Shown: one piece after another, positions 5,513-22,752 of the stretch | How the letters are laid out: every line of letters begins with the position of its first letter | Numbering within the stretch: the first letter of the stretch is position 1 | Source of the DNA: Nitrospirota bacterium | Lineage (GTDB): Bacteria; Nitrospirota; Nitrospiria; JACQBW01 | Assembly: GCA_016178585.1 (NCBI GenBank) | Contig: JACOTA010000028.1 | Span: 1-32,646 of the forward strand | Direction: 5' to 3' | DNA length: 32,646 bases | The notes under the pieces: model-generated | Databases searched by the model: none | Seen by the model: only the letters and a program-made list of their open reading frames with translations | Told to the model about the DNA's origin: nothing | Made by a program: the position numbers and the translations under genes

Positions 5513-7345
5513 ATGACGCAATCGTATGGCCGACAATTTAAAAAAATAATTCCTTGGAGGTTTCTTTTCAGAATTTTCCTGGTGATCGTCGTAATGAAGT
5601 TAATGGAAAGAGAAGCCGCCTTTGCGGCAATGAATGGGGCATTATCAGGTTCCATCGAAGGGGCCTATTTATATTCGGATATTGATAGTAATGGGACCAA
5701 AAGCTCAACTCGTGGAATTGAACAGAGGTACAATTTGCGGTATTCCCAAAATTTAATAGACTCCCGGCTCGGTTATTTCTCCGGCGCGGTCGGGTGGGCA
5801 GACGATCAAACCACACAATCAGGACCCAAAGAGGAATCGCGCCGGTATACCCTGAAAGATTATAATTTAAATCTGTCGCTTTTTCCGCGGTTTTCTCCCT
5901 TGGCCCTTTTTGCCCAGAAATCGGAGCGGGAAAACCAGTTTGACTTGACCACACACGACACGATCACGACCTATGGATTTGCCTGGCTTTTTACCCCTAT
6001 TTATCTGCCGCGCATAGCGGTTAATGGAACGCATACGACTTATACCAGTGATCGTTCCGGTCTTTTTCCGACCAGTGAAACCGATGTTTTATCGATCGAT
6101 TCAGGCGGGAGGTGGCGGAGTTTTAATGTGAATGCCCGCTATCTTTATAATCAGAGCAAAGACGAAAATGGAGAGACCAACTGGGGGCATGGAATTAATC
6201 TTAATCTTAACGGCGCGGTGACCCGGGCGTTAACGTTAGGGGCTTATGCCAATTACACCAATCGAGGGGGCACGGTACAGGGATTTAATTTTTATCAGGA
6301 AAACGCGCTGGGTTTAAATTTATTTTATTTGCCAAATCGGTTTTGGGATGGAAATCTCCGTTTTGACTTCATCGAATCGCCCGGCAGTTTGGATTTCAAA
6401 CGGTATCTGGTCAGCGGCGGGTTGAACCTTCACCCCACTTCAAAGCTGGATCTATTTAACAGCGCCCAGTATACAAGATTTGACACGGGAAACAGCCGGA
6501 CCGACTCAATTTTCGCGAATACAGGCCTCAATTACCGTCCTTTTTTTGGGTTGACGTTAACCGGCGGATTGGGAGCGGGAGCGACTAAACTTACGGGAGG
6601 CGGGGTGTCGTCGAAAAACTATTTTGGCCAGGCGAACTGGTCCGCCAACTATTTTAAAGTCCTTCCTCTCTTAAGGGTCAACGCCGGGTACGGAGGAAGC
6701 ATCAGTCAAAATCATAATGACACGGTGGGGGATTCGAGGGACCTTACGAATACCCTATCAGCCGGGATTGATAACACCCAAACCGAAATCATTCATGTCG
6801 GGGTAAATGGCACTTTAACGAAGATTCATCGGACCGTTCCTTCCCGGTCGGATGACCAGAACGAATTACGTCTGACGGCGCTGGCCGATAAACAGATCAG
6901 AAACATGATATTTTATAACGATTTCTTGATTTTGAATGGAAATTTAACCTACATAGATGTGTCAGGTTTTGGGGTCGATGGGAAAACCCTTTCGGAAGAA
7001 CTACATGGGAGTTACCAGTTTTTAACGGTGTTTACCCTTTTAGGAGACCTCTCGCATACCGAATACCCGTCGGGGCTTTATGGAAACAGCCTGACTGCGG
7101 CATCGGTTGACTTTTTAGGGAACATTAGACCCTGGATCAATGGCCTGTGGACCTTTAGCGTAAAAGAGTCGGTTAATGATTGGAAAAGCGCTCCGGCCCA
7201 AAAAACTTTTGAAGGGCAGACCCGGTTAAGTCATCAACTAGGGCGTCTGACGTTAAGTACCGATTATCAATATCTGCGAAATGATATCGGATCCATTAAC
7301 TCGGTCAGCCAGCAATTTTTAGTGAGGGCGATAAGGTCTTTTTAA
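5513..7345 (+). CDS. Outer-membrane beta-barrel protein (putative conduit or export barrel)
   Basis: This is a 610-residue protein. Residues 9-38 look like an N-terminal basic and hydrophobic export signal ending A-F-A, though the segment is interrupted by charged residues. The remainder is a succession of amphipathic strands with alternating aromatic and polar residues (for example LRYSQNLIDSRLGYFSGAV and GLNLFYLPNRFWDGNLRFDF). The chain ends ...VRAIRSF, a C-terminal Phe typical of BAM-inserted barrels. No heme motif, TonB box or POTRA domain is seen. The strand-rich length would suit a large barrel of about 20-26 strands. It sits between the prolyl isomerase and the second NHL gene, among three multiheme cytochrome genes. 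It could be the porin of an electron conduit or the export channel for the filament subunits; the sequence does not decide between these. It is not close to any named porin I recognise. Confidence 0.7.
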   Translation: MTQSYGRQFKKIIPWRFLFRIFLVIVVMKLMEREAAFAAMNGALSGSIEGAYLYSDIDSNGTKSSTRGIEQRYNLRYSQNLIDSRLGYFSGAVGWADDQTTQSGPKEESRRYTLKDYNLNLSLFPRFSPLALFAQKSERENQFDLTTHDTITTYGFAWLFTPIYLPRIAVNGTHTTYTSDRSGLFPTSETDVLSIDSGGRWRSFNVNARYLYNQSKDENGETNWGHGINLNLNGAVTRALTLGAYANYTNRGGTVQGFNFYQENALGLNLFYLPNRFWDGNLRFDFIESPGSLDFKRYLVSGGLNLHPTSKLDLFNSAQYTRFDTGNSRTDSIFANTGLNYRPFFGLTLTGGLGAGATKLTGGGVSSKNYFGQANWSANYFKVLPLLRVNAGYGGSISQNHNDTVGDSRDLTNTLSAGIDNTQTEIIHVGVNGTLTKIHRTVPSRSDDQNELRLTALADKQIRNMIFYNDFLILNGNLTYIDVSGFGVDGKTLSEELHGSYQFLTVFTLLGDLSHTEYPSGLYGNSLTAASVDFLGNIRPWINGLWTFSVKESVNDWKSAPAQKTFEGQTRLSHQLGRLTLSTDYQYLRNDIGSINSVSQQFLVRAIRSF

Positions 7346-7350: not shown

Positions 7351-8412
7351 ATGAAGATGGTATTACTTTCAAGTCTGACTTTTTTAATTGTTTTAGGTCT
7401 GGTGGGATGCGCAACAGAAAAATCCGTCCAGAAGGGGGAGGAGATTAATTTAACCTGGCCGCTTCCTCCTGATCCGCCCAGAATAAAGTACGTGAAAACA
7501 ATTCAAGACGCCAGGGAAGTTTTACCTAAAAAGGGTTTTTTTAAAAAAGCGGTCGCTTTTATCTTCGGAGAAGAAGAAACCCCTCGCTTGATTCATCCTT
7601 ATGGAGTTTTTGCCAGTCCGTCGGGAAAAATTTATGTCTCAGACTCTGATCTGCAGGTGGTTCACCTGTTTGATTTTTCCGGAAAAGTATACCGGCAGGT
7701 TTTTAAAATACCCGGCGGCATATTGAGGAGTCCGATCGGTCTCACCCTGGACAACCAGGGGAATCTTTATGTGGCCGATTCCGAACTCGGCCGAATTTTT
7801 AAGTTTAATCCGGAGGGAAAATTTCTTAAGACGCTGGGCGGCACGATGAAGAGGCCGACTGGGATCGGTCTGGATCCGAAAAGGTCGGTACTCTACGCGG
7901 TCGATACCGCGGAACACCATATTTTGGCCCTTAATTTGTCCGGAGAAAAGCTTTTTGAAATCGGTAAAAGGGGGATTGGAGAGGGAGAGTTTAATTTTCC
8001 GACCCATATTGCCGTCCACCCTGTCAGCGGCGATATTTTTGTTTCAGACTCTATGAATTTCCGGATTCAACAATTTTCACCTGAAGGAAAATTTATCAGG
8101 CAAATCGGTTCAGTTGGTTCCCAGATTGGAAACTTTTCCAAACTTAAGGGGATTGCCGTCGATTCGAACGGGATTCTTTTCGCCGTGGATGGGTTATATG
8201 ATACGGTTCAGATGTTTAATAGTAAAGGGGAGTTCTTGATGAATTTTGGCAAAGCTGGAAACCGTGAGGGGGAGTTCTGGCTTCCTGCCGGGATTGCCGT
8301 GCAAGAAGGAGTGGAGGGAGAAAAGATTTATGTCGCGGACTCTTATAACAAAAGAGTTCAGGTCTTTCAACTCTTGGGACCGGTTCCTTCGTTTAACGGA
8401 GGTTCGAAATAA
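7351..8412 (+). CDS. Six-bladed NHL-repeat lipoprotein, second copy
   Basis: This is a 353-residue predicted lipoprotein (lipobox L-V-G-C20). The linker WPLPPDPPRIKYVKTI is nearly identical to that of the protein at 2492-3538. Six NHL repeats follow (about residues 75-345), with blades such as P.GI..D..G...V.D.....VQMFN.KG.FL. The blade order, the GEFNFPTHIAVHP blade and the C-terminal IYVADSYNKRVQVFQLLG correspond one-to-one with the first copy, so the two arose by duplication. The gene begins five bases after the barrel gene. Its stop shares one base with the ATG of the 11-heme cytochrome (TAATG at 8410-8414), which indicates translational coupling. A periplasmic or surface scaffold for cytochrome assembly is the most economical reading; no direct evidence of function exists in the sequence. 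Confidence 0.8.
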   Translation: MKMVLLSSLTFLIVLGLVGCATEKSVQKGEEINLTWPLPPDPPRIKYVKTIQDAREVLPKKGFFKKAVAFIFGEEETPRLIHPYGVFASPSGKIYVSDSDLQVVHLFDFSGKVYRQVFKIPGGILRSPIGLTLDNQGNLYVADSELGRIFKFNPEGKFLKTLGGTMKRPTGIGLDPKRSVLYAVDTAEHHILALNLSGEKLFEIGKRGIGEGEFNFPTHIAVHPVSGDIFVSDSMNFRIQQFSPEGKFIRQIGSVGSQIGNFSKLKGIAVDSNGILFAVDGLYDTVQMFNSKGEFLMNFGKAGNREGEFWLPAGIAVQEGVEGEKIYVADSYNKRVQVFQLLGPVPSFNGGSK

Positions 8413-11282
8413 TGGGCCGGAAAAGAGATCTCTTTTTAATCATCGTTATCCTTCTCATTGTTCCGGTGATGGGCCAGATCGCTCCTCCGCCGGGAGCTCC
8501 ACCGACCAAACATGAGGATATTACCAATACCCGTCACAATCTTTCGGCCAATCCTCCTGACGTCACCAAACATCCTGAGATTTTTCCTAAAGGGACGGCG
8601 GGAGCCGATCCAAGGCGTGTTTTTACGCCTCAAACCAATGAAATCTGTGTCTTCTGTCATACCCCGCATGGGGCGAACCTTGCCGCGGCAACTTCAATTC
8701 AAGCGCCGATTTGGAACCGGCAACTCTCCTCTGCCTCATACACGTTGTATGATCAGGTCTGGAGTAAGTCGTTCGAAGGGAAATTGAATCGAGGAGCCCC
8801 CACCGGTTATTCGAGACTTTGTCTTTCCTGTCATGACGGGACCGTCGCCCTGGGAGGCGTGCTCAATAAACCAGGTTCAGGCGGCTTTATGGATACACCG
8901 TATACCATGCAGTATAAACAGGGGGATGTCTATTCCACTGATTCTTCCCAAATTCCACCGATTCCTGATACGATGCCTCTTGGGAGCGGAGTAGACACCG
9001 GAGATACCCGTCGGTTAGGGACGAATTTGACCAATACCCATCCTATTTCGTTTTTATTTGATTCTGCCCTGGCGGCAACCGATACGGAACTGGTTGATCC
9101 GGGGGCGCCGCTGCAAAAAGGTCCGGGGATCACCGTAACGGATCACACTCCGATCTCTCCGGCGGCGAGATATCCAGGGGATAACATTAACGTTTACGAT
9201 TCGGTTCAATGTACCTCGTGCCATAACCCGCATCAGGTCGACTATCCCAAGTTTTTGCGGGCCAGTATTTTTCAGAATGATGCCAATCATCCCGGGGAGC
9301 AGATTATCTGCCTCTATTGCCATGCGAAACCGGGTTGGGTCGGGAGCACTCATCAAGTGAGCCAGGCCCTTCACAACCCCTACCCCGATTCGAGCAACCC
9401 TTATGACTTTGACGGCACCCATACCATCGAACAGTTTGCCTGCCGGAACTGCCACGATCCGCATACCGTTCGGGGAGCCAAAAGAATTCACCGGGAAGGA
9501 GTCGATGCGACCGGACAGGATGCGACGGAAAAAACCTGTTTTCTTTGTCATTCGCCAAATACCAAACCGGCTGTTTCGGGCCAAGTCAATAGCTACAATA
9601 GTTATCCCTTAAGCACGCTGGTAGCCGGAGATCCGACCAGCACAGGCAATCCTCGTTTTCAGACTTCCACGGTGGCACCCGATATTAACAGCCAGTTTTC
9701 GAAGGATATTAATCCAACGAGTAACATCAACTGTTATACTTCCTGGAACCCTCAGGCGAATTTAATCGGCGCCGGAAATTTTCCAGAATGCGGAAGCGCC
9801 ATGAATCTAACCCTTGGACATGGGGGAAAGCATGAGCCTGAATTTGTGGCAAGACCCCAGGAAGGGGTGGAATTAGGGAGTCCGGCGCCGCCGGCAAACA
9901 ACGAATTTACGCCGGGGTCTCTGGGTCCGGACAAAATTCCCCATGTCACATGTACCGATTGCCATAATCCCCATCAGGTGGAACCCGGAAACCGGCTCAA
10001 AGGGATGAAGGGGATCGACCTCAATGGTCTTGTGGTAGGACATGGCGTTCCGGGAAATGACCGGGAGCCTTATGTTTATGAGGTCTGTTTCCGGTGCCAT
10101 GGAAACAGCTACACCAATATTTTTAATGGAGACCGTTTTCCCGATGATACGTTCATGCGGTCTGACCCAAGGGATTTCAGGCCCGCAAACGCTGATTTCA
10201 GTTTAAGAGGGTTCAGCAACAAACGAAAAGAATTTAATCCCAACACCCCGGATACGGCTCCGGACCATTCCCAACAGTTTGTGAATGCCTCTTTTCATCC
10301 CGTTGGCGCGGCAGGAAGAAACGGGACATCTCAAATCTGTAAACAGCTCACAGAAGCCTTTCATTTAAATTGTGCCAATCCGGTCACTGCGTTAAAAAAT
10401 GTGACGATTCAATGCACCGATTGCCATAACAGCGAAAAAACCAGTCTTGTTAAGGGACCCGTGACCGAGTCAAATTTAAGAGCAACGGATACCCTGTCCA
10501 ACTTTTTAGCCATCAAGCCGACATTAAGTCCATATGAACCGGTTGGCCCCCATGGTTCGACCTTCATTCGGATATTGCGCAACCGGTACAATACCGATAT
10601 TCAAAATCCAACCCGATGTTTTGAAGGAAGCCCGCCGAATGGAAACGGACCCAGTGGTGGAATTGGCTGTACCACCAGCGACGGGAACGGCGCTGTCAAT
10701 GCGGATTTGGCGACCCGGTCGTATTTTGACAACTTTTTGCTTTGTTTCCAATGCCATGACCGGCGGGCGTTTGACCCCTCCGAACCGGGAGCCAATCACA
10801 CGGACTCTTCCTGGACTAATTTTTTTGGGGATGTCTTCCAGGGGGGAGATACGCATTGGAACGGAAATCTTCACATGTATCACCTCCAATGGACCGGCGC
10901 CATGTGCCATGAGTGTCACTATAATGTCCATAGTAACGTAGAAGCGCAAAATACCCAATATGGAGATGGCCGGGGCCATATCGCGGATGTCGATGTCGCC
11001 CTTTGTAACGGAGTTGCTTCAGGAACGACCTATCCCTGTTTACCTCCCGATGGAGAGGATGGCCTCGTTGACGGAATAGTTGACACTCATTTAATTAATT
11101 TCGGTCCTCAAGCAGAGGGAACCGTGGCTTCTAAACCCCGCTGGGCCTATGATGCGGTTAACAAACAATTCCAATGTTTTTTACGATGTCACAATGAAAT
11201 TATGAATACCTGCCACTACGGACGAAACACAGCCGGAGGAGGCGGGCAGGCCTGGTGCGCGGGCGGGCCAAAAGCTGGATAG
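8412..11282 (+). CDS. Large multiheme c-type cytochrome (11 CXXCH plus one CX3CH)
   Basis: This is a 956-residue secreted protein with a signal peptide at about residues 1-21 and no lipobox. Canonical CXXCH sites lie at residues 79, 137, 267, 300, 344, 376, 514, 559, 668, 778 and 832 (first Cys of each). A CX3CH (C-F-L-R-C-H, 922-927) lies near the C terminus and may be a twelfth, non-canonical heme site. The first part repeats the architecture of the small cytochromes (TRHNL, CVFCHTPHG, CLSCHDGT, THPISF, CTSCHNPH), so this looks like an enlarged doubled-CXXCH family member. Long heme-poor stretches (381-513, 564-667, 673-777) separate groups of hemes. It is probably periplasmic or outer-surface, passing electrons between the periplasm and the smaller cytochromes. 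The exact position in the chain is inferred from context. Confidence 0.85.
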   Translation: MGRKRDLFLIIVILLIVPVMGQIAPPPGAPPTKHEDITNTRHNLSANPPDVTKHPEIFPKGTAGADPRRVFTPQTNEICVFCHTPHGANLAAATSIQAPIWNRQLSSASYTLYDQVWSKSFEGKLNRGAPTGYSRLCLSCHDGTVALGGVLNKPGSGGFMDTPYTMQYKQGDVYSTDSSQIPPIPDTMPLGSGVDTGDTRRLGTNLTNTHPISFLFDSALAATDTELVDPGAPLQKGPGITVTDHTPISPAARYPGDNINVYDSVQCTSCHNPHQVDYPKFLRASIFQNDANHPGEQIICLYCHAKPGWVGSTHQVSQALHNPYPDSSNPYDFDGTHTIEQFACRNCHDPHTVRGAKRIHREGVDATGQDATEKTCFLCHSPNTKPAVSGQVNSYNSYPLSTLVAGDPTSTGNPRFQTSTVAPDINSQFSKDINPTSNINCYTSWNPQANLIGAGNFPECGSAMNLTLGHGGKHEPEFVARPQEGVELGSPAPPANNEFTPGSLGPDKIPHVTCTDCHNPHQVEPGNRLKGMKGIDLNGLVVGHGVPGNDREPYVYEVCFRCHGNSYTNIFNGDRFPDDTFMRSDPRDFRPANADFSLRGFSNKRKEFNPNTPDTAPDHSQQFVNASFHPVGAAGRNGTSQICKQLTEAFHLNCANPVTALKNVTIQCTDCHNSEKTSLVKGPVTESNLRATDTLSNFLAIKPTLSPYEPVGPHGSTFIRILRNRYNTDIQNPTRCFEGSPPNGNGPSGGIGCTTSDGNGAVNADLATRSYFDNFLLCFQCHDRRAFDPSEPGANHTDSSWTNFFGDVFQGGDTHWNGNLHMYHLQWTGAMCHECHYNVHSNVEAQNTQYGDGRGHIADVDVALCNGVASGTTYPCLPPDGEDGLVDGIVDTHLINFGPQAEGTVASKPRWAYDAVNKQFQCFLRCHNEIMNTCHYGRNTAGGGGQAWCAGGPKAG

Positions 11283-11293: not shown

Positions 11294-14200
11294 ATGAAAA
11301 AAATCCAAAAACAAAATCGTTCAGTAAGTCAGAATTTGAATAAAATATTTATCTATGGAGTCGCCTGGATTTTGTTGACCGGGCTCATAAATCCGGATGA
11401 GGTTGCCGCGGCTCTTCAGGCTGTCAGTCTAAATCCTTCCAGCGTGGGAAAGGGCGCCGTTGGTAAAAATATCGCGATCTACGGATCGGGGTTTCAGTGT
11501 GGAGTCAAAGTGACTTTCTCGGATCCCTCTGTAACCTCTCCGAATGATCCCGCACGGAGTCCGTTTCAAAATTTATGTCCTTCCGGGGTTATTCCGTCCA
11601 ATGTTCAATTTGTGTCGACGAGTTCAACGACTTTTACCAGCTCTAACGTATTTATCTATGTGAACGTTCAGGCTGGATCTACGACACCTTCGCAGGTGGT
11701 TCTGACTTTTACCAATCCCCTGCCTCCCAATGGAGACGGAAGCAGCGCGACAAAAACGCTTATCATTAATCCCTCTCCCGTGATGACTTTACCTTTAGTG
11801 ACTAATCCATTAACCGTGACGCAAGGGATGACGTTTGATTTAACAATCAATGGATCGGGGATTCAAAACGGAGCCAATCTTTCATTTTCTGTCCCCGGTC
11901 TGACGGTCAATGCTTTTACGGTCAATGGACCTGGAACAGAGGCAATCGCGAACATCATTGTCTCTCAAAATGTAATGCCGTCTCGAGTGGGCGTGACGCT
12001 GACGAATCCGGATGGCGGAGTCTCTACGGTCGCGTCCGGCTTTTCAATTCAACCTTTTTTTGGATCAAAAACCCCCGCCATCACCGTCTATGAGGATCCC
12101 CGGGCCGGCATCGGAAACAGAGTTCCTTATAACTTGTTCTGGAACGGGATATGGTCACAAGAGGGCAACCTGGTTCAAAACTCTCAAAGTTATTATATGC
12201 CCCAGGCGCTGGTTCTTAAATCGCATCCTTTTCAATTACAACAAATGGCCGCGCACCTGATTTATCCCTATATAGAATTTCAAGTCCTGGACCAGGGGAC
12301 GTGGAGCCATCCGTTGCTCATTACCGATTTTTCCAGTTCAATTTCGAGTAAAAATTTTGATGTGGCCTTTGAATCACAATCGGGGAACGGACTCATCGTC
12401 TATGGAACGTATCTTGGGGTTTATGGTCGTCGATTTTTTCAGAGCGTTGCTGTCACGCCGTGTGACCCTTCGGTCAATGGAAATTCTTCCCCCCCCTGCT
12501 GGGGAAACCCGATTACCCTTTTGACTGCCATCAATCCGACGGATTCGAATAATTCCACATTTCTTGCCAGAGCAAAATTGCTGTCCAATCCGGATAGCAC
12601 CAAAAATGAGATTCTCCTTGCTTATCAGGATGATAAGGGAAACCTTTATCTGCGGTCTTGGAACGGTAGCGCGAATGGAAATACGGGCGCCTTTTCTCCC
12701 GAATATCAGGTATCGACAGCAACCCGCGCCGATTCAACCCCGTTTGATCTTGCCTATAGCCAGATCGGCAAGCAGGGGATGCTCGCCTGGTTAGAAGTCA
12801 ATAATGGAACACCCAAATCGTGCCTCTGGAGTGGAACGACCTCGACCTGTGTTTTGACAGTTCCGAATCCGGCTCCAACAGGAAGTACTGCCACGACGAA
12901 TTTATTCTCCATCAAGTTGGTTTCCGATCCTGCTTCCAATAAGATCGCACTGGCCACATTAGAGAATGGTTCTACCGGTATCTTGAAGGTTCAAATATGG
13001 GATGGAACAACCTGGCCGCCTCCTAATTCTTATCCCGGTAATTTAATGGGGGTAATATTGTTGAGTAATCGCTTAAATGCTCTTTTCCCCGGCTTTGATC
13101 AGACCAATTTTGATTTAATCTGGAAAACAGCGCCGGCAAACAGGCTGTTTGCCGTTTATGCCGATTTCTATGATGGTGTGACCGGTTTTGGAGGCCTTCG
13201 TTATCAGTCCTGGGTGCCGGCGTCAGGGTGGGATTCGACCGACACCTTCATCACCGCCGTTCCTGCCGATGCTTCAGGAACTAATTATCCTCTATTTGGT
13301 TCCCTTCAATTTGATTCTGATCCAAGAACGGGGGATATTTTGGGGGCAATGAAAACAACGGACAGCCCCTATAATAATCATTTTTCAGATCAACTTTTTA
13401 CTATTCGCTGGGATGGAAACACTTCTTCCTGGACAGAGTTTACAAACCAGACGGCGGGCGCATTTTTTTCTCTGGTTACTCCTGTGGGTATCAATTATTT
13501 TAAAAGTTTTCCTACGATTTCCGCCACGACTTCCGCATTCACTTTCACGCAGGGGAGCGCTGTCAACTTATCCGTTTCGGGGACATTCATCCAAAACGGC
13601 GCGGTCGTTACATTCCCTGGTTTTACCGGCTCCACGACCGTTGCGCATTTGGGTGGAGTGGACACCGTAACCGCGACAGGATCCATAAGTTTAAACGCCA
13701 TTCCGGGCGTTTACGATTTGACGATCACCAATTCCGACAGGTCCAATGTCATTGGCAAAGGAATGGTCACGATCAATGCCAGTCTTTCGAATTCTCCGAC
13801 GATTTATTCCGTGATTCCAAACAGCAGGGGGCAGGGGGCGGCCAATCAGACTTTAGTTCTATCCGGATATCGATTCCCGGCCAGTTTTGCGGTCTCATTT
13901 TCCGGAAATAGTTCCGATATCAATGTGACGAGTCAAACCATGCTCTCTCCGGATCAGGTGTCCATTCAAGTTGACGTCTCCCCGAACGCGGTTGTGGGAA
14001 CCAGAGGAGTCGTTATTACCGATTTAGTTTCAGGGGGGCAGAGTTATATTTCTCCCGGTCTTTTTACGGTTAATTATGGCCCCACGATTTTGAGCGTGAC
14101 ACCGGGAGGGCTTATCCAGGGGTCGAAAGAGGTTCCCATTCTGCTATCTGGAAATGATTTTAAACCCGGAGCCGCCATTATTCTGACCGATGGGTCAAAC

Positions 14201-17200
14201 ACCCTTGGTTCGCAATCATCCGGAACTATTTCTTCTTCGCTTTACCAGAACAAGATGACCGGGAATCGTTTTTACATTTCAGCGGAAACTTCACCCGCGG
14301 TTGTTTTAAGCCGAATTGAAATAGGAGTTTCTCTGGTCGATTCGACCCAGGGTAAAAAAAGCGGCCAGGTTGCGATCTACACAGATAACGGAGGGGTACC
14401 CGGCACCTTGTTAGCTTCCAGAGAAATCCTCGAATTAACCCCATCGCCCCTGCCCGATGGCAGTCCCCCGAATTTTTTCGATTTTAATTTAAGCGCGCCG
14501 GTTATTTTACCCGCTCCTGCCAGTTATTGGGTATTGTTTAATGTCAACGGAGTGCAGACTCTTATCGTGAGTGAACAAAATGTGGCAAATTGTACGATTG
14601 ATGGATTTTCTCTAATTCCCGCGACGCCCTGCGCGGGAATTTCCAAAGACCAGACTTATGGGTCGTGGCCGGCGACAGGAGGTCTTCTAACAACATGGAG
14701 ACAGCGTCCAGGGATCCGGTACGGAATTTACCTTTCCTATTACCCGGTGGTTGGGAGTGCCCAGACAGGAACAAATAGTTCCGGAATTTATCAGGATGAG
14801 GCGACAGGGAGCGATAGTCTCACCGTAGGTGTGAATACTCAAATTCGTTATCTTTATGCCTATGTTAAAACGGTTGACCCTCTTTTACCGTCAGCCACTA
14901 TGGCCATTTATGACAATTCCGGAGCAGGCGGAACACCGGGAAATTCGAAGATAGGCGCCCTCAACATCTCCAATACCAGTCTGATTCCTAACAGCTTTAA
15001 TCGATTTCAGGTTGGAAATTTTGGGGTAGCCCTTTCCGCTGGAACCTACTGGATCATGGCAAATGCCAAGGGTGCGGGAACGACCTTTGCTTATGATTCC
15101 GGGGGAGGGGTTGTGGCCAACAGCGTTCAGTCGCCCCTGACCTATACATCAGCATGGCCGGCTATGTTTCTTCCGGCGACGACTTTAATTCCGCAAACTC
15201 GCTATTCTTTTTTTGGTGTGACCAATCTAAGACCATTAGGGCAATCCTCCTGTTTTGCGCCGGCTCCCTGTAATACCGATGGTCCTGACTCCAATCAATT
15301 CACCGGAACACAATTCATAACGACCGCGATCTCTCATATGATCGGAATTTCCTTCTTTGTCAACACGGTCGATTCAGGTAGTCCGTTTGGGCAGGCGGCC
15401 ATCTATGACGACAATAATGGAACGCCGGGAAACCGGGTTTTAACAACATCCTCTCAGACGCTTCTCCCGGGTTCTTTTAACACGATTTCGATCCCGCCAA
15501 CCCAGCTTCCAGCCGGAAAATATTGGATCCTTGTCAATGTCAGCGGGCCTCTAACGACGTTAACCTATGACGAAGGAACGACAGAAACAAGCGCCAAACG
15601 ATATCCAGCGCCATTTTCCAATCCATGGCCGGCAACCGGCGGTACTGGATGGACAACCTTTCCTGGAAGAAGATACGCGTTCCATGTGGTTCCTGATATA
15701 TCCGTGAGCAGCAGTAGTTTTTTAACAAACAATAGTCTTGGAGCAAATATCTCAATTGATCCTACTGCCGGGCTTGGATTAAGAGAAATCTGTGTCTTAA
15801 ATCCTGACGGGGGGAAAGGATGTTTCACTGTTGTTGATTTTGTCAAATTCGGGACCATAACCAATCCCGCGTTGACGGTATACGGCACAACGCTTTCTCC
15901 TTTTTCTTTCTATCGAAAATGGAATGGATATTCGCCCTGGGCTACTGAAAATTCGACATCCGCAACTCCCGCCAGTCCCGTATTATGGGAAGTGATCCGG
16001 CCTAGTCCAAAATCAGGAACCCCTGAAAAAATTTCAGGGTCGATCAGTAATGTTTCTTTGACTCTGCAAGTCTGGAACGGGACTTCCTGGGGATCTTCTC
16101 CTCCCAATGTGACCCCTTCGGCAGCTTTTTCACGTTCCTTTGACATCGCATACGAAAGTTTGTCTGGAAAAGGCCTGGCGGTGTATGGCATGTCAGGAAA
16201 TTCAGCGCCACAATATCAAATCTGGAATGGTCTAACCTGGACGTCAGGAACGGTTCCGGGAAGTCCGACGGGAACTCCTTTGTGGGTACGTCTTGAACCC
16301 AATCCTAAAAGTAACGAAATTGTCCTGGTTTACCTGACCGGAAATGTTAATCCGGATAGCTCTGTTACAAATGGTGTGATACATGCGTTGATCTGGAACG
16401 GAACCTCTTTCGGTAATGAGCAGGTCGTCATCCTTCCGGCCTCCAATATCAATCTCTGTTCAACCTGTACTCCCCCAGTTATAGGACAGTCTTTTGATAT
16501 TGCTTATGAAAATCGCTCCGGACGAGCGTTCTTGGCGTGGGGATCTGTCGGTAATCCAACCCCATCCTACATGATATGGAATGGGGTTCAATGGTCGGCG
16601 CAGGCAACGGCTAACCAGGCCGCCGCCGATTCCCTGACGGGGTTGATTTATTTTAAATTGTCGGGGGATTCTAATTCTAACCAGATCGCAATGGGAACCG
16701 GAACCCTCGATGGCCAATATTACATTCAGATATGGAATGGCGCAAGTTGGGGGTCTCCTGTTTCCAGGATGGATACGGCATCTCCTTCCTTTAGTTTAAC
16801 AGGTGAATGGAGTGCCAGTTCAACCGTTCCGCCCGGTTCGGTGGTAACCGAAAAAGTCTCCCAGGTGGTTTCTGATTTTGGAGAATTGACTTTCTCAGGG
16901 ACAGAAATCAATATCATCGGGCAGAAGAATAAAGGTCTTGGAATCGCGGACATTTACTTGGATAACCAGATTAAGGGGAGTATTGATTTCTATTCTTTAA
17001 GCCCGGTTCGGAGAAGAATTCTTTTTTCCTTAAGCAATTTGACGAATTCAACCCATCAATTAAGAATAGAACCCAGCGGGTCAAAGAATAGTCCATCGTT
17101 TCCCGGGGCCGCGATTACCGATTCATTCAGCACTTCAAATAGAGTGACAGGTTCCCTTTTCAAGGTTAAAAACAATACGACTATTAAAGCTTTGTCGGTT

Positions 17201-20200
17201 TTTTTAAAAACCTGTGATCCTGTTTCAACCCGCCGAAATTTTCAAATCGCGCTTTATTCGGATAATGGCGGCGTTCCCGGAAATTTGTTGGGACCCATGG
17301 CGCCTGTGACAGGAACCTGTTTCCCGGGATCGACGGATAATACGTGGATTAATCAAATCACTGTTCCCGGCATTCTATTGACAAAAGGAAACAGTTACTG
17401 GATCATGGTCAACACCAACGGGAATGGAAATGCTTTGACCTATACCGATAGTTCGGTTTCCGGCACTCAGGCCAAGTCGGTGCAGATGAACCTTTCTTAT
17501 GGGACATGGCCCTCCTCTTTTGCCGCGGCCGCGCCATGGACGCAAACCCCTTCCAGATTTTATGGACTTTATGGCGCGGAACAATTCGGGCCGATTACCA
17601 TAGGAATGGCTCCCCCCGTCCCGATCGATGCCTTTGAGGTTAAAAGTCAGATCGATTCTCCTGCCGTTGGGAGTATTGATCTTCTTTATCAATCCGATCA
17701 AAAGGATAACTTTTTTAATGTGGGAAGAACGTTTGATCTTGCCTGGGAAAAAGACTCGGGCCAGTTATTAACTGTTTTTGGTTCTCCCAGGTCGGTCAAC
17801 GTCTGTAATTATTTTAGCGCCTCTTCGGCGGCGACTAAATTTTATTACGGAACCCGTTTTCGGAAATGGAATTCAACCGACGGGTGGTTGGTGGATCAGC
17901 AGGTTCCCCTGGTGGGGAGTGATCTGGTTCCCCGGTGGATCCAGTTATCTTCCGATTCCTCCTCAAATGACCTTTTTCTTGGCGTGATCGGACATCCCAT
18001 AGACCAATTTGTTCCGTCGAGCGCGAATGCCACGGAATGTGTGGTTGCTTTTTCTCCCCTCAGTACCGTTCAAAACCCTGTGAGCGACCTGAGCATACTC
18101 CACAATCACCAGTACGGGTGGCATCATGAAGCCTGGACCGATAAGGAAGTTCTTAGCACCGCCTCTTCAGGTTCGCTTCAATCGACGATTGGTTTTCAAA
18201 CATATACCTCATTCGGAGAATCTTTAATGACGGCTTTTGATCCGGACGCCACGCCTCCTTCTCCCATTTCAACCTTAACCTATACGGGGGTTTCAAGCTC
18301 TTCTGTGTCTCTGCAATGGCTGGCTTCAGGGGATGATGGGGACCTGGGCCGTGCGGCAACTTATACCGTCGCTTATTCCACCAGCCCGATCAATACGGAG
18401 TTGAACTACGCGGCCATTCCTCTGGCGCAAAAAATAACCATTTCTGCGACTCCGTTTGCGGTCGGAACTTCGCTGACCTTTACGGAGACTTTTACCGTCA
18501 CCAATTTAAACCCTTCGACAACCTATTATTTTGCGGTTAAAGCAACAGACAGAGCCGGAAATATTTCTTCTCTTTCACCCGCGAATCCTTCCGTTTTTAT
18601 TGCAACCTCCGCTTCGGGGACCGTGGGAACAGGGATAACCGCACCCGGACCGATATCCGATCTGACGGTAGTTTCCGGTTCGCTGACGAATAATAATGTT
18701 CAACTCACCTGGACAGCTCCTGGAAACACAGGTTCAATCGGTACAGCGGCGGCCTACGATCTTCGGTGGTCCGGCGCCCCGATTACCAATGACAGTTCAT
18801 TTAATACGGCAACCCCTGTTCTTGCGACAGATGGCACCGGACGGAATGGCCTTTCCGTTCCTCATGCGGCAGGGACACGTGAATTTTTTGATTTTGTGGG
18901 ACTCCCTCAAGGAACTCTGACTTATTTTGCCATTAAAGCGTGTGGAACGCAGGCCATGGACATCATCACGTTTCGGTGCGCGGGAAACCCGGCAAATATT
19001 TCTCCGATTAATTCAAACAGCCCTGTATTGGTCAATAATGGCGGCGTGGTTAATTTAACACCGCCCGCCGCTATTTCAGATATGGTCGTCTCAAACACTA
19101 CCTCTAATGCGCTGACTCTTCATTGGACCGCGCCCGGGAACAACGGACAAATCGGCGCCGCGATGCGGTATGATCTAAGAATTTCAGCCAACCCGATTAC
19201 CTCGGTCAACTTTGATACCGCGTTTCAGGTGTTAAATCTCTTATCCCCGGCATCTGCCGGAAGTGTTCAGTCGTTTACGGTTGGCAATCTTCTTTCAAAC
19301 AATACCACAGGTCAGATCTACTATTTCGCGATAAAGGCCGTTAATTCGTCCGGAATCGTTTCGGCCATTTCAAATATTGTCTCCGGCACGACCCTGCCTC
19401 TGACTGACACCTCGCCTCCTGCCGCAATTTCTGATCTTTTCGTCGTTACCAGCGGGATTAACTCAACCTCGGTGACCCTCTCCTGGACGGCGACCGGTGA
19501 CAATGGAACAGCAGGAACAGCCTATCAATATGACATCCGGTATTCTGAACTTCCAATTGTTGAAGATGGAGCCGCCTTTGTTCAAGATCGGCAGATTGAA
19601 TTTAAAAATGCCGGTCAGGTTACCCAGCCACCCCTGCCGGGTCCTTCCGGGCATCATGAACTGTTTACCCTTGCGGGTTTAAACTCAAATACGATTTACT
19701 ATTTTGCCGTCAAGGCCGTTGATAAGGCTAGCAACAGGTCTTTCTTATCAACCTGTGTCAACTGCCCGGGACATACGGCCTTACGATCAGGGTACAATTT
19801 AGTCAGCGTTCCTTACCGGTTAAATGGAACGAATGATCCCGCGTCTGTTTTTGGAAATGATGTGTCAAAACCGGTTACGGTTTATCAATGGAATAATGGC
19901 TTTTATTCTATTCCTGCCATGGTATCCGGAGGGAACGGTTATTTTCTTTATTCTCCCGGTAACAATAGCATTCTGAAGGCCTCGGACACGCTGGGAAATT
20001 CTTTAGGGACTCCTGAAAACTCTCCTAATGTGATGATTCCTTTGCAAACAGGATGGAACATGATCGGGAATCCTTATCTTCATCCTATCTTCTTAAAGGA
20101 TACCTGTATCAAGAAGGGAACATCGGCCTCTGTTCCTTTTATGGATGCTGTGAGCGGCGGGTGGGTCGACGCGTCAATTTATTCCTTCGACGGAACTCAA

Positions 20201-20347
20201 TATAGCGCAGAGAGATACGTTGATATATTAAATCCGCCGGCTAATCCGCCGGCTGACCTTGATCCATGGAATGGGTACTGGTTTCAGGTTCTTTTAAATG
20301 ATGCGGCCTATACTTTGGTTTATGTCGATAGCGGAGGATGTCCATGA
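11294..20347 (+). CDS. Giant secreted mosaic protein (IPT/TIG-like, propeller-like, DNGGxPG and FN3 modules)
   Basis: This protein has about 3,017 residues if ATG 11294 is used. That start gives a Lys-rich n-region, a hydrophobic core (IFIYGVAWILLTGLI) and an A-A-A cleavage zone. An in-frame GTG at 11255, inside the cytochrome gene, would add 13 residues. IPT/TIG-like domains lie at about nt 11430-12045 and 13510-14190. Propeller-like stretches carry repeated WNG.W and FD(I/V/L)A(Y/W)E..SG...(V/A)(Y/F)G (nt 12060-13500, 15850-16790, 17600-18000). Four modules have AIYxDNGGxPG...YWI..N at about 14240-14755, 14780-15220, 15290-15690 and 17110-17575. Four FN3 domains span 18250-19745. A C-terminal segment has paired GYNLVSVPY and GWNMIGNPY motifs. 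No catalytic motif or membrane anchor is seen. An adhesin or surface scaffold in the same operon as the cytochromes is likely; its binding target is unknown. Confidence 0.8.
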   Translation: MKKIQKQNRSVSQNLNKIFIYGVAWILLTGLINPDEVAAALQAVSLNPSSVGKGAVGKNIAIYGSGFQCGVKVTFSDPSVTSPNDPARSPFQNLCPSGVIPSNVQFVSTSSTTFTSSNVFIYVNVQAGSTTPSQVVLTFTNPLPPNGDGSSATKTLIINPSPVMTLPLVTNPLTVTQGMTFDLTINGSGIQNGANLSFSVPGLTVNAFTVNGPGTEAIANIIVSQNVMPSRVGVTLTNPDGGVSTVASGFSIQPFFGSKTPAITVYEDPRAGIGNRVPYNLFWNGIWSQEGNLVQNSQSYYMPQALVLKSHPFQLQQMAAHLIYPYIEFQVLDQGTWSHPLLITDFSSSISSKNFDVAFESQSGNGLIVYGTYLGVYGRRFFQSVAVTPCDPSVNGNSSPPCWGNPITLLTAINPTDSNNSTFLARAKLLSNPDSTKNEILLAYQDDKGNLYLRSWNGSANGNTGAFSPEYQVSTATRADSTPFDLAYSQIGKQGMLAWLEVNNGTPKSCLWSGTTSTCVLTVPNPAPTGSTATTNLFSIKLVSDPASNKIALATLENGSTGILKVQIWDGTTWPPPNSYPGNLMGVILLSNRLNALFPGFDQTNFDLIWKTAPANRLFAVYADFYDGVTGFGGLRYQSWVPASGWDSTDTFITAVPADASGTNYPLFGSLQFDSDPRTGDILGAMKTTDSPYNNHFSDQLFTIRWDGNTSSWTEFTNQTAGAFFSLVTPVGINYFKSFPTISATTSAFTFTQGSAVNLSVSGTFIQNGAVVTFPGFTGSTTVAHLGGVDTVTATGSISLNAIPGVYDLTITNSDRSNVIGKGMVTINASLSNSPTIYSVIPNSRGQGAANQTLVLSGYRFPASFAVSFSGNSSDINVTSQTMLSPDQVSIQVDVSPNAVVGTRGVVITDLVSGGQSYISPGLFTVNYGPTILSVTPGGLIQGSKEVPILLSGNDFKPGAAIILTDGSNTLGSQSSGTISSSLYQNKMTGNRFYISAETSPAVVLSRIEIGVSLVDSTQGKKSGQVAIYTDNGGVPGTLLASREILELTPSPLPDGSPPNFFDFNLSAPVILPAPASYWVLFNVNGVQTLIVSEQNVANCTIDGFSLIPATPCAGISKDQTYGSWPATGGLLTTWRQRPGIRYGIYLSYYPVVGSAQTGTNSSGIYQDEATGSDSLTVGVNTQIRYLYAYVKTVDPLLPSATMAIYDNSGAGGTPGNSKIGALNISNTSLIPNSFNRFQVGNFGVALSAGTYWIMANAKGAGTTFAYDSGGGVVANSVQSPLTYTSAWPAMFLPATTLIPQTRYSFFGVTNLRPLGQSSCFAPAPCNTDGPDSNQFTGTQFITTAISHMIGISFFVNTVDSGSPFGQAAIYDDNNGTPGNRVLTTSSQTLLPGSFNTISIPPTQLPAGKYWILVNVSGPLTTLTYDEGTTETSAKRYPAPFSNPWPATGGTGWTTFPGRRYAFHVVPDISVSSSSFLTNNSLGANISIDPTAGLGLREICVLNPDGGKGCFTVVDFVKFGTITNPALTVYGTTLSPFSFYRKWNGYSPWATENSTSATPASPVLWEVIRPSPKSGTPEKISGSISNVSLTLQVWNGTSWGSSPPNVTPSAAFSRSFDIAYESLSGKGLAVYGMSGNSAPQYQIWNGLTWTSGTVPGSPTGTPLWVRLEPNPKSNEIVLVYLTGNVNPDSSVTNGVIHALIWNGTSFGNEQVVILPASNINLCSTCTPPVIGQSFDIAYENRSGRAFLAWGSVGNPTPSYMIWNGVQWSAQATANQAAADSLTGLIYFKLSGDSNSNQIAMGTGTLDGQYYIQIWNGASWGSPVSRMDTASPSFSLTGEWSASSTVPPGSVVTEKVSQVVSDFGELTFSGTEINIIGQKNKGLGIADIYLDNQIKGSIDFYSLSPVRRRILFSLSNLTNSTHQLRIEPSGSKNSPSFPGAAITDSFSTSNRVTGSLFKVKNNTTIKALSVFLKTCDPVSTRRNFQIALYSDNGGVPGNLLGPMAPVTGTCFPGSTDNTWINQITVPGILLTKGNSYWIMVNTNGNGNALTYTDSSVSGTQAKSVQMNLSYGTWPSSFAAAAPWTQTPSRFYGLYGAEQFGPITIGMAPPVPIDAFEVKSQIDSPAVGSIDLLYQSDQKDNFFNVGRTFDLAWEKDSGQLLTVFGSPRSVNVCNYFSASSAATKFYYGTRFRKWNSTDGWLVDQQVPLVGSDLVPRWIQLSSDSSSNDLFLGVIGHPIDQFVPSSANATECVVAFSPLSTVQNPVSDLSILHNHQYGWHHEAWTDKEVLSTASSGSLQSTIGFQTYTSFGESLMTAFDPDATPPSPISTLTYTGVSSSSVSLQWLASGDDGDLGRAATYTVAYSTSPINTELNYAAIPLAQKITISATPFAVGTSLTFTETFTVTNLNPSTTYYFAVKATDRAGNISSLSPANPSVFIATSASGTVGTGITAPGPISDLTVVSGSLTNNNVQLTWTAPGNTGSIGTAAAYDLRWSGAPITNDSSFNTATPVLATDGTGRNGLSVPHAAGTREFFDFVGLPQGTLTYFAIKACGTQAMDIITFRCAGNPANISPINSNSPVLVNNGGVVNLTPPAAISDMVVSNTTSNALTLHWTAPGNNGQIGAAMRYDLRISANPITSVNFDTAFQVLNLLSPASAGSVQSFTVGNLLSNNTTGQIYYFAIKAVNSSGIVSAISNIVSGTTLPLTDTSPPAAISDLFVVTSGINSTSVTLSWTATGDNGTAGTAYQYDIRYSELPIVEDGAAFVQDRQIEFKNAGQVTQPPLPGPSGHHELFTLAGLNSNTIYYFAVKAVDKASNRSFLSTCVNCPGHTALRSGYNLVSVPYRLNGTNDPASVFGNDVSKPVTVYQWNNGFYSIPAMVSGGNGYFLYSPGNNSILKASDTLGNSLGTPENSPNVMIPLQTGWNMIGNPYLHPIFLKDTCIKKGTSASVPFMDAVSGGWVDASIYSFDGTQYSAERYVDILNPPANPPADLDPWNGYWFQVLLNDAAYTLVYVDSGGCP
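20333..20337 (+). promoter_or_regulatory. Shine-Dalgarno GGAGG that fixes the start at 20344
   Basis: GGAGG lies six bases before ATG 20344 but abuts the alternative ATG 20338. The spacing and the ATGA overlap with the giant gene's stop favour 20344. Confidence 0.7.
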
Positions 20348-20838
20348 AAGGCTTCTTTTTTTTCTGTTTAGTGATATTGACCTTGATTTTCCCTGATGAC
20401 GTTTGGAGTGGAGATACAACCCTTTTGTTCACGGTGAAAACAGAGGTTGATCATGTCCTTCTTAAAAAAGATCTTCGGATCGGTTTGTGGAAAGAGGGTC
20501 AAGATGGGATGGATCCCATGGATACGCAGGCGATGTTAAACGGTTTGTTTGACGCCTATTTTGATAATCAAATTGAAAAGACCCCTCCTCTCTGGTGGGA
20601 TATTCGATCTTTAAGACCTGTCCAGGAGTGGAATTTGATCGTTAAGGCCCCTGAAGGTAAAAAAGTGGTTCTGGAATGGAAACAGGTTCCATTTGCGTCG
20701 GGAATGAACCAGGCCTCATTGATACTCATTGATTCTGATACCGGCCAGGAGACGCCGGTGGATGGGACAGGAGCAATTGAATATTCAAGCACGCGTTCGT
20801 TAAAAAAGTTTTTAATAAAATCGGTTCAGAAGTTTTAA
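20344..20838 (+). CDS. Small secreted beta-sandwich-like protein, unknown function
   Basis: This is a 164-residue protein with a clear signal peptide (MKGFFFFCLVILTLIFP...). The mature part contains LRIGLWKEGQDGMDPMD, a DAYF block, a W-W-D-I-R segment, WNLIVKAPEGKKVVLEWK and LILIDSDTG. From memory, the order LRIG...DG(F/M)D...DAYF...W.L.V..P.GK.V.L.W resembles a small beta-rich module commonly found near the C-terminal ends of large multidomain surface proteins that also carry FN3 domains. Here it is a separate gene. It overlaps the giant gene's stop by four bases (ATGA) and ends directly against the next ATG, so it is translationally coupled on both sides. It may be a detached domain or accessory subunit of the giant protein. 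No named family is claimed. Confidence 0.65.
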   Translation: MKGFFFFCLVILTLIFPDDVWSGDTTLLFTVKTEVDHVLLKKDLRIGLWKEGQDGMDPMDTQAMLNGLFDAYFDNQIEKTPPLWWDIRSLRPVQEWNLIVKAPEGKKVVLEWKQVPFASGMNQASLILIDSDTGQETPVDGTGAIEYSSTRSLKKFLIKSVQKF

Positions 20839-21669
20839 ATGAACCGCCATTTTAAAAAACAGGTCTGGATTGTTTTATTTTTTCTTCTGGGGAGTTTTTT
20901 GACATTCGAATATTTTTTTGACAGGAAAATCGGAATGGGTGCGGGAGAAGAAGAGAAAATGGTTAAAATTCCCGCGGGCCCATTTATCATGGGGAGCGAT
21001 GAGCGGGATGGTATTGTCGGCATAGATGTGGGGGTAGATGAAGTCCCAAGGCATCAGGTGGTTCTTCCCGATTATTACATTGATCGTTTTGAAGTGACCA
21101 TTCAACAATATGAAGGGTTTATCCAGGCGACAAAGCATCGGGTCCCTTCAGAGCCCCGTTTTCCTGACTACTATCAGTGGCAAAAAGGACATCCCCCGGA
21201 AGGCCAGGAAAATTATCCCGTCAGTTACGTCGATTTTGAAGACGCTTCCGCTTACTGCGCCTGGCGCGGAAAAAGGCTCCCAACCGAAGAAGAGTGGGAA
21301 AAGGCAGCACGTGGAACCGACGGGCGAAAATGGCCCTGGGGGAATGTTTTTGATCCAAAGAAATGTAACACAGATGAAAGTCAGTTAAATTGGACAACGA
21401 CCGTTGGAAGTTTTTCGGGCGGCGCTTCTCCCTACGGCGTCATGGATATGTGCGGCAATCTTGCCGAATGGACCTCATCTTGGTATAAACCTTATCCCGG
21501 TAATGATTTGCAAAGAACGGCTTTCGGAGAAAAATTTAAAGTGATCAGAGGCGGTGGATGGACGCTTCCAGCTCATCCCTTTAGCAGGACCAGTCATCGA
21601 AGTTATGCCGTCAGGGCGGAAAAAAGACACCGGTCTATCGGATTTAGATGCGTGAAGGAGGCCTCATGA
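20839..21669 (+). CDS. SUMF1-domain (formylglycine-generating-enzyme-like) protein, first copy
   Basis: This is a 276-residue protein starting at the base after the upstream stop. An N-terminal hydrophobic helix (residues 8-27) suggests a signal anchor or signal peptide. The SUMF1/C-type-lectin-like fold fills about residues 33-274: KIPAGPFIMGSDE, PRHQV, YYIDRFEVTIQQYEGFI, PVSYVDFEDASAYCAW, GKRLPTEEEWEKAARG, WPWGN, SPYGVMDMCGNLAEWTSS, VIRGGGW and IGFRC. The closely spaced Cys pair that catalyses formylglycine formation after the RGG(S/G)W motif in true FGE is absent, and there is no sulfatase gene in the window. It is therefore more likely a SUMF1-fold accessory, as in many surface systems, than a sulfatase-maturing enzyme. 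It is paralogous to the next gene, which overlaps its stop by four bases. Confidence 0.85.
   Translation: MNRHFKKQVWIVLFFLLGSFLTFEYFFDRKIGMGAGEEEKMVKIPAGPFIMGSDERDGIVGIDVGVDEVPRHQVVLPDYYIDRFEVTIQQYEGFIQATKHRVPSEPRFPDYYQWQKGHPPEGQENYPVSYVDFEDASAYCAWRGKRLPTEEEWEKAARGTDGRKWPWGNVFDPKKCNTDESQLNWTTTVGSFSGGASPYGVMDMCGNLAEWTSSWYKPYPGNDLQRTAFGEKFKVIRGGGWTLPAHPFSRTSHRSYAVRAEKRHRSIGFRCVKEAS
21657..21661 (+). promoter_or_regulatory. Shine-Dalgarno GGAGG that fixes the start at 21666
   Basis: GGAGG is four bases before ATG 21666, which overlaps the previous stop as ATGA. An upstream in-frame ATG at 21648 precedes this site and would put six extra residues ahead of a normal signal peptide, so 21666 is preferred. 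Confidence 0.7.
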
Positions 21670-22439
21670 AAATAGGAATGTTTTTCCTGGTTTTACTGCT
21701 CGTTTGTTGGGGAAATTTTTTGAAGCATGTCAAGGCGGATTTTCCGGCTGGAATGGTTTTAATTCCTTCAGGGTCTTTTACTCTGGGAGCCTCCTCTGAA
21801 GATGGAATTGAAGGAATCGATGTGGGGGTGGATCAAATTCCAAGACATCGGATATCCCTTAAAAGCTTCTATATTGATCAGAATGAAGTGACAGTGGGTG
21901 AGTACCGTCAATTTGTACAACAAACCCGTCACCAGGAACCTTGTATCTGGACTGATCCGGGTTTTTCAAAACCCCCGGATCAAGAAACGCTGAGCGATGT
22001 CTCCTATTTCGATGCCGAAGCTTATTGCGAATGGAAGGGGAAGAGATTGCCAACAGAAGAAGAATGGGAAAAAGCCGCTCGTGGCGCTGATGGGAGAAGA
22101 TGGCCATGGGGAAACGATTTTTACAAAGAAAGAACCAATACCCTGGAATCAGGTTTAAAAAAAGTGGTTCCCCCTGAGACTTTCCAGGGCGATGTGTCGC
22201 CCTATGGGGTGCATGATATGGCTGGAAATGTGATGGAATGGACCTCTTCCTGGTACGAACCTTATCCGGGCAATACGCTGAAAAGAACGGCTTTTGGGAA
22301 AAAATTTAAAATCCTGCGCGGGGGAACCTGGAGTGAATCCGCGACTCCGTTCGCCCGTACAACACACCGCTTCCCTGTTTTACCCAGTATTGCCCAACCT
22401 GATTTCGGGATTCGATGCGCAAAGGATGTTTTCCCATGA
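21666..22439 (+). CDS. SUMF1-domain protein, second (tandem) copy
   Basis: This is a 257-residue protein with a signal peptide (MKIGMFFLVLLLVCWGNFL, cleavage near V-K-A). Its SUMF1 domain shares most landmarks with the preceding gene: VLIPSGSFTLGASSEDG, GIDVGVDQIPRH, FYIDQNEVTVGEYRQFV, GKRLPTEEEWEKAARGADG, WPWGN, SPYGVHDMAGNVMEWTSSW, RTAFGKKFKILRGGTW and FGIRC. The two are an evident tandem duplication that has diverged mainly at the loops and N termini. As in its neighbour, the catalytic Cys pair of genuine formylglycine-generating enzymes is not present after RGGTW. The gene closes the long co-directional run begun at 1492 and is followed by repeat-rich non-coding DNA. A secreted accessory role, possibly acting on the giant surface protein, is a guess from position. 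Confidence 0.85.
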   Translation: MKIGMFFLVLLLVCWGNFLKHVKADFPAGMVLIPSGSFTLGASSEDGIEGIDVGVDQIPRHRISLKSFYIDQNEVTVGEYRQFVQQTRHQEPCIWTDPGFSKPPDQETLSDVSYFDAEAYCEWKGKRLPTEEEWEKAARGADGRRWPWGNDFYKERTNTLESGLKKVVPPETFQGDVSPYGVHDMAGNVMEWTSSWYEPYPGNTLKRTAFGKKFKILRGGTWSESATPFARTTHRFPVLPSIAQPDFGIRCAKDVFP

Positions 22440-22563: not shown

Positions 22564-22615
22564 ACCTTCTATCGCCGTTCCGGGGGAATCTACCCAAGAA
22601 CAGAGTTAGAAAGCT

Positions 22616-22691
22616 GTCATTGCGAACAAAGTGAAGCAATCTCAAGATTTTACGATAAGATTGCCACGCACCCTTCGGTGCTCGCAATGAC
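22616..22691. repeat. GTCATTGCGAG palindromic repeat, unit 2
   Basis: This 76-bp unit begins GTCATTGCGAAC and ends GCTCGCAATGAC. An inner GCAATCTC...AGATTGCC arm mirrors unit 1. Confidence 0.75.
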
Positions 22692-22732
22692 ATGATTAAT
22701 AAGTGGGTGCGAAGTCTATCGCTGGTCTTGGG

Positions 22733-22752
22733 TTCGCTTCGCTCGCAATGAC
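22733..22752. repeat. GTCATTGCGAG repeat, right half only
   Basis: TTCGCTTCGCTCGCAATGAC is the right arm of the same repeat, with no left arm nearby. It is a truncated third unit. Confidence 0.65.

What the first reader, a model, noticed from the sequence alone, without database searches (positions are those of the whole stretch)
11294..20347. Giant modular surface protein inside an electron-transfer operon
About 3,000 residues combine IPT/TIG-like domains, at least five FD.A.E..SG propeller signatures, some ten WNG motifs, four AIYxDNGGxPG modules and four FN3 domains. It has no anchor and no catalytic motif. It takes over a quarter of the window and directly follows the largest cytochrome. 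It may tether cells or filaments to a mineral or partner cell, a role not described for nanowire operons as far as I know.
Basis: partly seen in the sequence, partly recalled or inferred. Interest (0 to 1): 0.65.

Follow-up and report, generated by a model that had tools for sequence, protein, structure and literature searches.

The report
Lectin-like giant tether beside nanowire genes
Next to genes for electron-conducting cytochromes, this groundwater-type Nitrospirota bacterium encodes a huge secreted protein built from lectin-like propellers and a conserved tail that seems to pair with a small partner protein, which suggests (but does not prove) a surface tether for electron-exchanging cells.

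Summary
The 3,017-residue ORF is real and starts 11 bases after an 11-heme cytochrome in an OmcE-type operon. It has a leader peptide, two copies of a propeller (one modelled: seven-bladed type, closest to PLL-family lectins), four DNGGxPG modules, four FN3 domains and a 194-residue C-terminal domain (CTD) that matches no Pfam or NCBIfam family. In 98 genomes of the class, CTD occurs in 16 and the P domain in 17, including all 16; 15 of the 16 also have the 11-heme cytochrome. In Nitrospirota the CTD ends a protein and P usually begins the next; in Armatimonadota both lie in one chain. Of 24 genomes with CTD and cytochrome, 14 have them within about 10 kb, 6 apart, 4 undetermined, inside and outside the class. 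Families with the cytochrome but no CTD show that the giant is accessory. Best reading: a modular lectin-type surface tether docked through CTD:P. Adhesion, ligand and docking are inferred. An FN3-type adhesion idea for an electron-transfer cluster is already in print (OetF).

The parts
11294..20347 (+). giant secreted modular protein, 3,017 aa
   Evidence: orthologues at about 45% identity in both other genomes of the family searched
11294..11416 (+). Sec-type leader peptide (residues 1-41, read by eye)
   Evidence: sequence; the two orthologues also start with hydrophobic leaders
11417..11959 (+). two Ig/IPT-like repeats (residues 42-222)
   Evidence: self-comparison; not a Pfam TIG match
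11960..13498 (+). propeller A region (residues 223-735)
   Evidence: profile match of the propeller B alignment, 1.6e-38
13499..14248 (+). Ig/IPT-like repeats (residues 736-985)
14249..15733 (+). three DNGGxPG modules (residues 986-1480)
15734..16783 (+). propeller B (residues 1481-1830), seven-bladed-type fold, PLL-lectin-like
16784..17128 (+). beta-rich insert (residues 1831-1945), absent in orthologue G002
   Evidence: fold not established
17129..17623 (+). fourth DNGGxPG module (residues 1946-2110), almost absent in G002
17624..18223 (+). region with one FDLAWEKDSG motif (residues 2111-2310), fold unknown
18224..19762 (+). four FN3 domains (residues 2311-2823)
19763..20344 (+). conserved C-terminal domain, CTD (residues 2824-3017)
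   Evidence: alignment A1
20338..20838 (+). P166, small secreted partner protein (P domain)
8412..11282 (+). 11-heme cytochrome, N-terminal part OmcE-like
1492..2313 (+). 5-heme OmcE-like cytochrome
   Evidence: PDB 7tfs 5.3e-20
3579..4616 (+). 4-heme OmcE-like cytochrome
   Evidence: PDB 7tfs 7.5e-13
2492..3538 (+). NHL propeller protein, lipobox-like cysteine
4592..5467 (+). PpiC-type prolyl isomerase
5513..7345 (+). putative outer-membrane barrel/porin (by position and conservation; no clear Pfam match)
7351..8412 (+). second NHL protein, lipobox-like cysteine
20839..22439 (+). two FGE-sulfatase-like proteins
   Evidence: conserved near the 11-heme cytochrome

Best explanation
The protein is an accessory, secreted, modular surface tether of an OmcE-type extracellular electron transfer operon. 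Shown: it lies in one gene string with the 11-heme cytochrome and P166; most of its length is fast-changing binding-type modules, including lectin-like seven-bladed-type propellers; its FN3+CTD end is the constant part shared by otherwise different giants. Inferred: it is exported by Sec and an unknown outer-membrane route, docks through its CTD to P166 (or another P-domain protein) at the cell surface or on the cytochrome layer, and uses the propellers to bind glycans of the matrix, a partner cell or a coated mineral, so that cytochromes and target stay in contact.
For: OmcE-like cytochromes. Gene string with an 11-base gap and an overlapping stop/start. Orthologues in both other family genomes searched, next to the same cytochrome. 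CTD in 16 of 98 class genomes, one protein each; 15 of 16 with the cytochrome; Fisher p 1.3e-9 by genome, 0.016 by family (5 of 5 CTD families have the cytochrome, 7 of 13 families overall). P domain (E<1e-40) in 17 of 98: all 16 CTD genomes plus one 72%-complete genome. CTD ends the protein and P is next downstream in 30 of 37 examined Nitrospirota CTD genes. 16 of 18 CTD ORFs in 7 Armatimonadota-type loci carry P in the same chain right after CTD. Recurrence by the same cytochrome in f16 and f23, outside the class. Propeller model: Z 19.2, 3.8 A over 266 residues to PLL4. The G019 giant has FN3 and a CTD match but four LamG domains.
Against: Ligand binding, location, expression and CTD:P contact are untested. 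Propeller model pLDDT is 61.6 overall (70-94 in most of the propeller), and non-lectin propellers score nearly as high (Z about 17). No sequence match to any solved structure. 12 class genomes have the cytochrome and no CTD; in 6 of 24 genomes with both, the genes are apart. Outside the class 16 of 25 CTD genomes lack a strong (E<1e-50) 11-heme match, so the CTD/P module itself is not tied to cytochromes. Relatedness of genomes inflates the genome-level p.
Confidence: 0.5

Rival explanations
1. A general surface/matrix adhesin with no functional tie to electron transfer: the CTD/P module is a widespread surface part that happens to sit in the operon in some lineages.
For: CTD/P pairs occur with no such cytochrome found in the fetched stretch (G330, G105, G129, and second loci in G113, G121, G157); f9 giants lie about 240-260 kb from the operon in G036 and G050.
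Against: Linkage to the same 11-heme cytochrome in 14 of 24 genomes with both, in several gene orders and families, and in the class CTD almost only in cytochrome-bearing genomes.
Confidence: 0.27
2. CTD plus P is a sorting/anchoring signal pair for an undescribed outer-membrane export route; the giant is a passenger.
For: CTD at the very end of the protein (0-14 residues left in the 37 Nitrospirota CTD ORFs with intact ends); in the Armatimonadota relative a FlgD_ig domain follows CTD-P, and its NCBIfam matches include T9SS proteins, all below cut-off.
Against: In the class only one CTD protein per genome, unlike a general sorting tag; P proteins carry their own leader-like N-termini; no T9SS tail on the window protein.
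Confidence: 0.3
3. Glycan capture or sensing for nutrition rather than attachment.
For: Lectin- and sialidase-like propeller hits.
Against: No catalytic domain, and no transporter or glycosidase family among the operon's proteins.
Confidence: 0.06

Closest known systems
OetF and adhesins of the OetI electron-transfer cluster in syntrophic sulfate reducers (Murali 2023, PMC10553843)
   Same: Adhesion-type FN3 domain encoded in a cytochrome/porin cluster, proposed to bind matrix or partner
   Different: There the FN3 domain is in a cytochrome; here it is a 3,017-aa protein without heme motifs, with propellers, CTD and P partner. OetF itself was not compared here
PLL-family seven-bladed propeller lectins (PLL, PHL, BP39L)
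   Same: Closest solved folds of propeller B (Z 18-19)
   Different: 7-13% identity in the alignments, no family match by sequence, sugar-site residues not examined
OmcE cytochrome filament (PDB 7tfs)
   Same: All three cytochromes of the operon match it by sequence
   Different: The giant itself is not a cytochrome; filament formation here is unknown
Armatimonadota CTD-P-FlgD_ig proteins (L093-L097, L102, L110)
   Same: CTD and P domains homologous to the giant's tail and P166
   Different: Domains are in one chain, followed by a FlgD_ig-like end (tested by Pfam for L096 only); their gene neighbourhood was not examined

Membership tests
PLL-type seven-bladed propeller lectin | seven-bladed propeller fold | tested here: met
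   best rows PLL4/PLL2/PHL, Z 18-19, rmsd 3.6-4.2, 256-285 aligned; non-lectin propellers Z about 17, so a propeller fold is supported and the lectin class is not decided
PLL-type seven-bladed propeller lectin | recognisable sequence relation to the family | tested here: not met
   no lectin family in Pfam at E<=1, no solved-structure sequence match at E<=0.01
PLL-type seven-bladed propeller lectin | sugar-binding residues and binding | not tested
   needs a solved structure or glycan array
OmcE-type cytochrome operon (neighbours) | cytochromes homologous to OmcE | tested here: met
   7tfs at 6.2e-14, 5.3e-20, 7.5e-13
OmcE-type cytochrome operon (neighbours) | cytochromes polymerise into extracellular filaments | not testable with these tools
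   needs cryo-EM
FN3 domain (PF00041) | score over Pfam cut-off | tested here: met
   80.4 bits against 25
IPT/TIG domain | Pfam TIG match | tested here: not met
   absent at E<=1
T9SS cargo | type A sorting tail (TIGR04183) or FlgD_ig end | tested here: not met
   no such match for P0001

The most novel reading that the evidence does not exclude
CTD and P are a new docking pair, and electron-transfer operons of Nitrospirota encode a multi-subunit tether built with it: in f23 the gene order is giant-CTD | P-Ig-FN3-CTD | P | 11-heme cytochrome, so each protein's CTD would plug into the P domain that begins the next one, ending at a P subunit encoded next to the cytochrome. The window would hold the two-subunit version (giant-CTD | P166). 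Exchangeable lectin-type heads on a constant dock would set what the wired cell holds on to.
Probability: 0.3. Interest if true: 0.72.

Novelty: new variant of a known kind. Interest (0 to 1): 0.52.

Why it matters
How cells with cytochrome filaments hold on to minerals, matrix or partner cells is poorly known. A conserved surface module encoded beside the cytochromes, with a constant dock and changing lectin-like heads, makes attachment in electron exchange directly testable, and the CTD/P pair offers a new candidate protein-protein dock in uncultured bacteria.

Tried and rejected
Tried without result: the first scan of named genomes with the whole giant found no relative; sequence search of solved structures found nothing for the giant or the porin; Foldseek/VIA on the CTD+P model of the Armatimonadota relative (pLDDT 82.3) matched in VIA only its FlgD_ig part (residues about 357-456) to Ig-type domains, so CTD and P folds stay unassigned, which is no evidence that they are new. 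Promoter and terminator scans gave no excess over shuffles (19 against 18.3; 21 against 20.6).

Rejected: misassembly or frameshift as the source of the CTD|P split (separate leader-like N-termini, repeated in many genomes). A cytochrome or enzyme function for the giant (no heme motif, no catalytic family). 'P everywhere': the P alignment A5 hits 98 of 98 genomes, but the listed weak hits fall mostly on its FN3 half; only hits at E<1e-40 covering the P domain were counted (17 of 98). G015 was dropped from the cytochrome count because it matches only at 4.4e-19, to small cytochromes. One P gene (G016) is missed by the ORF table because a longer reverse ORF hides it; it was counted. L122 (CTD cut by the contig end) was left out of the 37. 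The f23/f16 cytochrome loci were fetched because a CTD match and a cytochrome match were near each other, so they are not a random sample for linkage. G022, G025, G028 and G123 are undetermined for linkage because genes lie at contig ends or on fragments.

The seven of 37 CTD genes without P directly downstream: G006 (P directly upstream), G019 (P two genes upstream), G022 and G025 (P on another contig), G264, G107, G115 (none found nearby).

Papers: PMC10553843 passages and section 9; passages of PMC9040806, PMC12246660, PMC13194489, PMC13264449; PMC12954529 searched, no matching term; PLL papers seen only as a listing. Baquero 2023 is not held and was not read. Searches listed no paper that I recognised from title or abstract start as describing a large surface protein in an OmcE-type operon; most of the listed papers were not opened.

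Full report
What is there. The window is contig C28 of a 2.45 Mb, 96%-complete genome. The ORF 11294-20347 is intact, 3,017 aa.

Surroundings. Upstream, in order: a regulator-type propeller, 5-heme cytochrome, NHL protein, 4-heme cytochrome, PpiC, porin-like barrel, NHL protein, 11-heme cytochrome. All three cytochromes match OmcE (7tfs) by sequence. The giant starts 11 bases after the last cytochrome; P166 starts inside the end of the giant; two FGE-like genes follow with a 0-base and an overlapping junction. The same core order recurs in f3, f5, f6 and f8; in f9 the one operon read (G036) shows it in part. In f8 (G035, G013) and in G011 and G006 the FGE-like genes follow the cytochrome without a giant in between, and G022 has two small other ORFs there, so the core does not need the giant at that place.

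Anatomy. Self-comparison, profiles and a model give: leader; Ig-like repeats; propeller A; Ig-like repeats; three DNGGxPG modules; propeller B; a beta-rich insert; a fourth module; an unassigned stretch; four FN3; CTD. Propeller B was modelled with ten rows (pLDDT 61.6 overall, most of the propeller 70-94). VIA-align ranks PLL-family lectins first (Z 19.2, 3.8 A, 266 aligned), but WD40-type and enzyme propellers reach Z about 17; the fold is supported, sugar binding is not shown.

Turnover. Between the three genomes of the family, the giant is about 45% identical, the 11-heme cytochrome 77-78%, the CTD 63%. G002 lacks the insert and nearly all of module four. The propeller profile A2 hits only f1, f3 and f6 (7 of 98 genomes), while the CTD is also in f5 and f9, whose giants that I scanned keep an FN3 domain; the G019 giant has four LamG lectin-type domains. 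So the protein has a constant end and exchangeable heads.

Partner. P166 has relatives next to the giants of f1, f3, f6 and f9 and near those of G006 and G019 in f5. P-domain matches at E<1e-40 occur in 17 of 98 genomes: the 16 CTD genomes and G046 (72% complete). Among 37 Nitrospirota CTD genes with an intact end, P is the next gene downstream in 30. In 16 of 18 CTD ORFs of seven Armatimonadota-type loci, P follows CTD in the same chain; over all 37 CTD ORFs in loci L090-L112 it is 16 of 37. Domains fused in one lineage and split into neighbouring genes in another are commonly taken as a sign of interaction; that step is inference.

Link to cytochromes. In the class: CTD and strong 11-heme cytochrome together in 15, CTD alone 1 (G016, 65% complete), cytochrome alone 12, neither 70, of 98. 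In a second search of 395 genomes of the phylum, CTD is in 34 and any match of the 11-heme query in 129, many of them small cytochromes only. Outside the class, 25 genomes have CTD; 9 of these have a strong (E<1e-50) cytochrome match; f17 (3 genomes) has the strong match without CTD. Of the 24 genomes with both (15 + 9), CTD gene and cytochrome lie within about 10 kb in 14 (G000, G001, G002, G004, G012, G019, G098, G107, G113, G115, G121, G135, G149, G157), apart in 6 (G006, G007, G020, G036, G042, G050), undetermined in 4 (G022, G025, G028, G123). For G001 the link is the last 73 residues of the cytochrome at the contig start; for G115 it is a piece of the cytochrome at the contig end. In f23 the order giant-CTD | P...CTD | P | cytochrome | FGE recurs in five genomes.

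How it may work. Shown: gene string, leader-like N-termini, constant end, changing heads, CTD/P coupling in genomes. Inferred: surface location, docking, binding, and service to electron transfer. The lectin-like heads make a glycan or matrix target more likely than bare mineral, in my judgement.

Against known systems. The nearest published idea I saw is OetF, a cytochrome with FN3 domains in an electron-transfer cluster, proposed to touch the matrix or to serve partner recognition (PMC10553843). A Manganitrophaceae paper describes PCC_1 and Cyc2; the passages I read do not mention this cluster (PMC9040806). CTD and P matched no Pfam family at the thresholds used and no NCBIfam family. I rate it a new variant of modular surface adhesins, with a possible new dock as the bold reading.

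Noticed in passing
window 22593-22735: Interspersed palindrome-like repeat of about 140 bases; about 40 near-full-length matches (94-100%, this copy included) across the genome are listed, and only 40 of 182 candidates were scored.
   Followed up: partly
window 20839-22439: One to three FGE-sulfatase-like genes follow the 11-heme cytochrome in most lineages read, also where the giant is absent. The catalytic cysteine pair that I recall for formylglycine-generating enzymes is not evident in the RGG-W region of the window copies.
   Followed up: partly
window 28384-31238: Secretin with TPR and a C-terminal cohesin-type domain, followed by a pseudopilin-like gene; kept in order in G002. A possible export route, untested; T2SSF-type genes are elsewhere in the genome.
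   Followed up: partly
window 22846-23080: Small ORF read by eye as exodeoxyribonuclease VII small subunit, ahead of polyprenyl synthetase and DXS genes.
   Followed up: no
L151, L153, L155, L156: Giants of about 4,200 aa (one cut at 3,700 by the fetched stretch) in family f16, beside or near the cytochrome and FGE genes where contigs allow, with only a weak CTD match (2e-5 to 4e-10).
   Followed up: partly
L022:4081-10978: Between the cytochrome operon and the giant of G004: BNR/sortilin-type propeller, a 4-heme TPR protein and an FG-GAP/ASPIC protein.
   Followed up: no
window 1492-2313 and 3579-4616: Both small cytochromes also match PDB 9yuq (a 16-chain 'putative multiheme cytochrome c') nearly as well as OmcE.
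   Followed up: no
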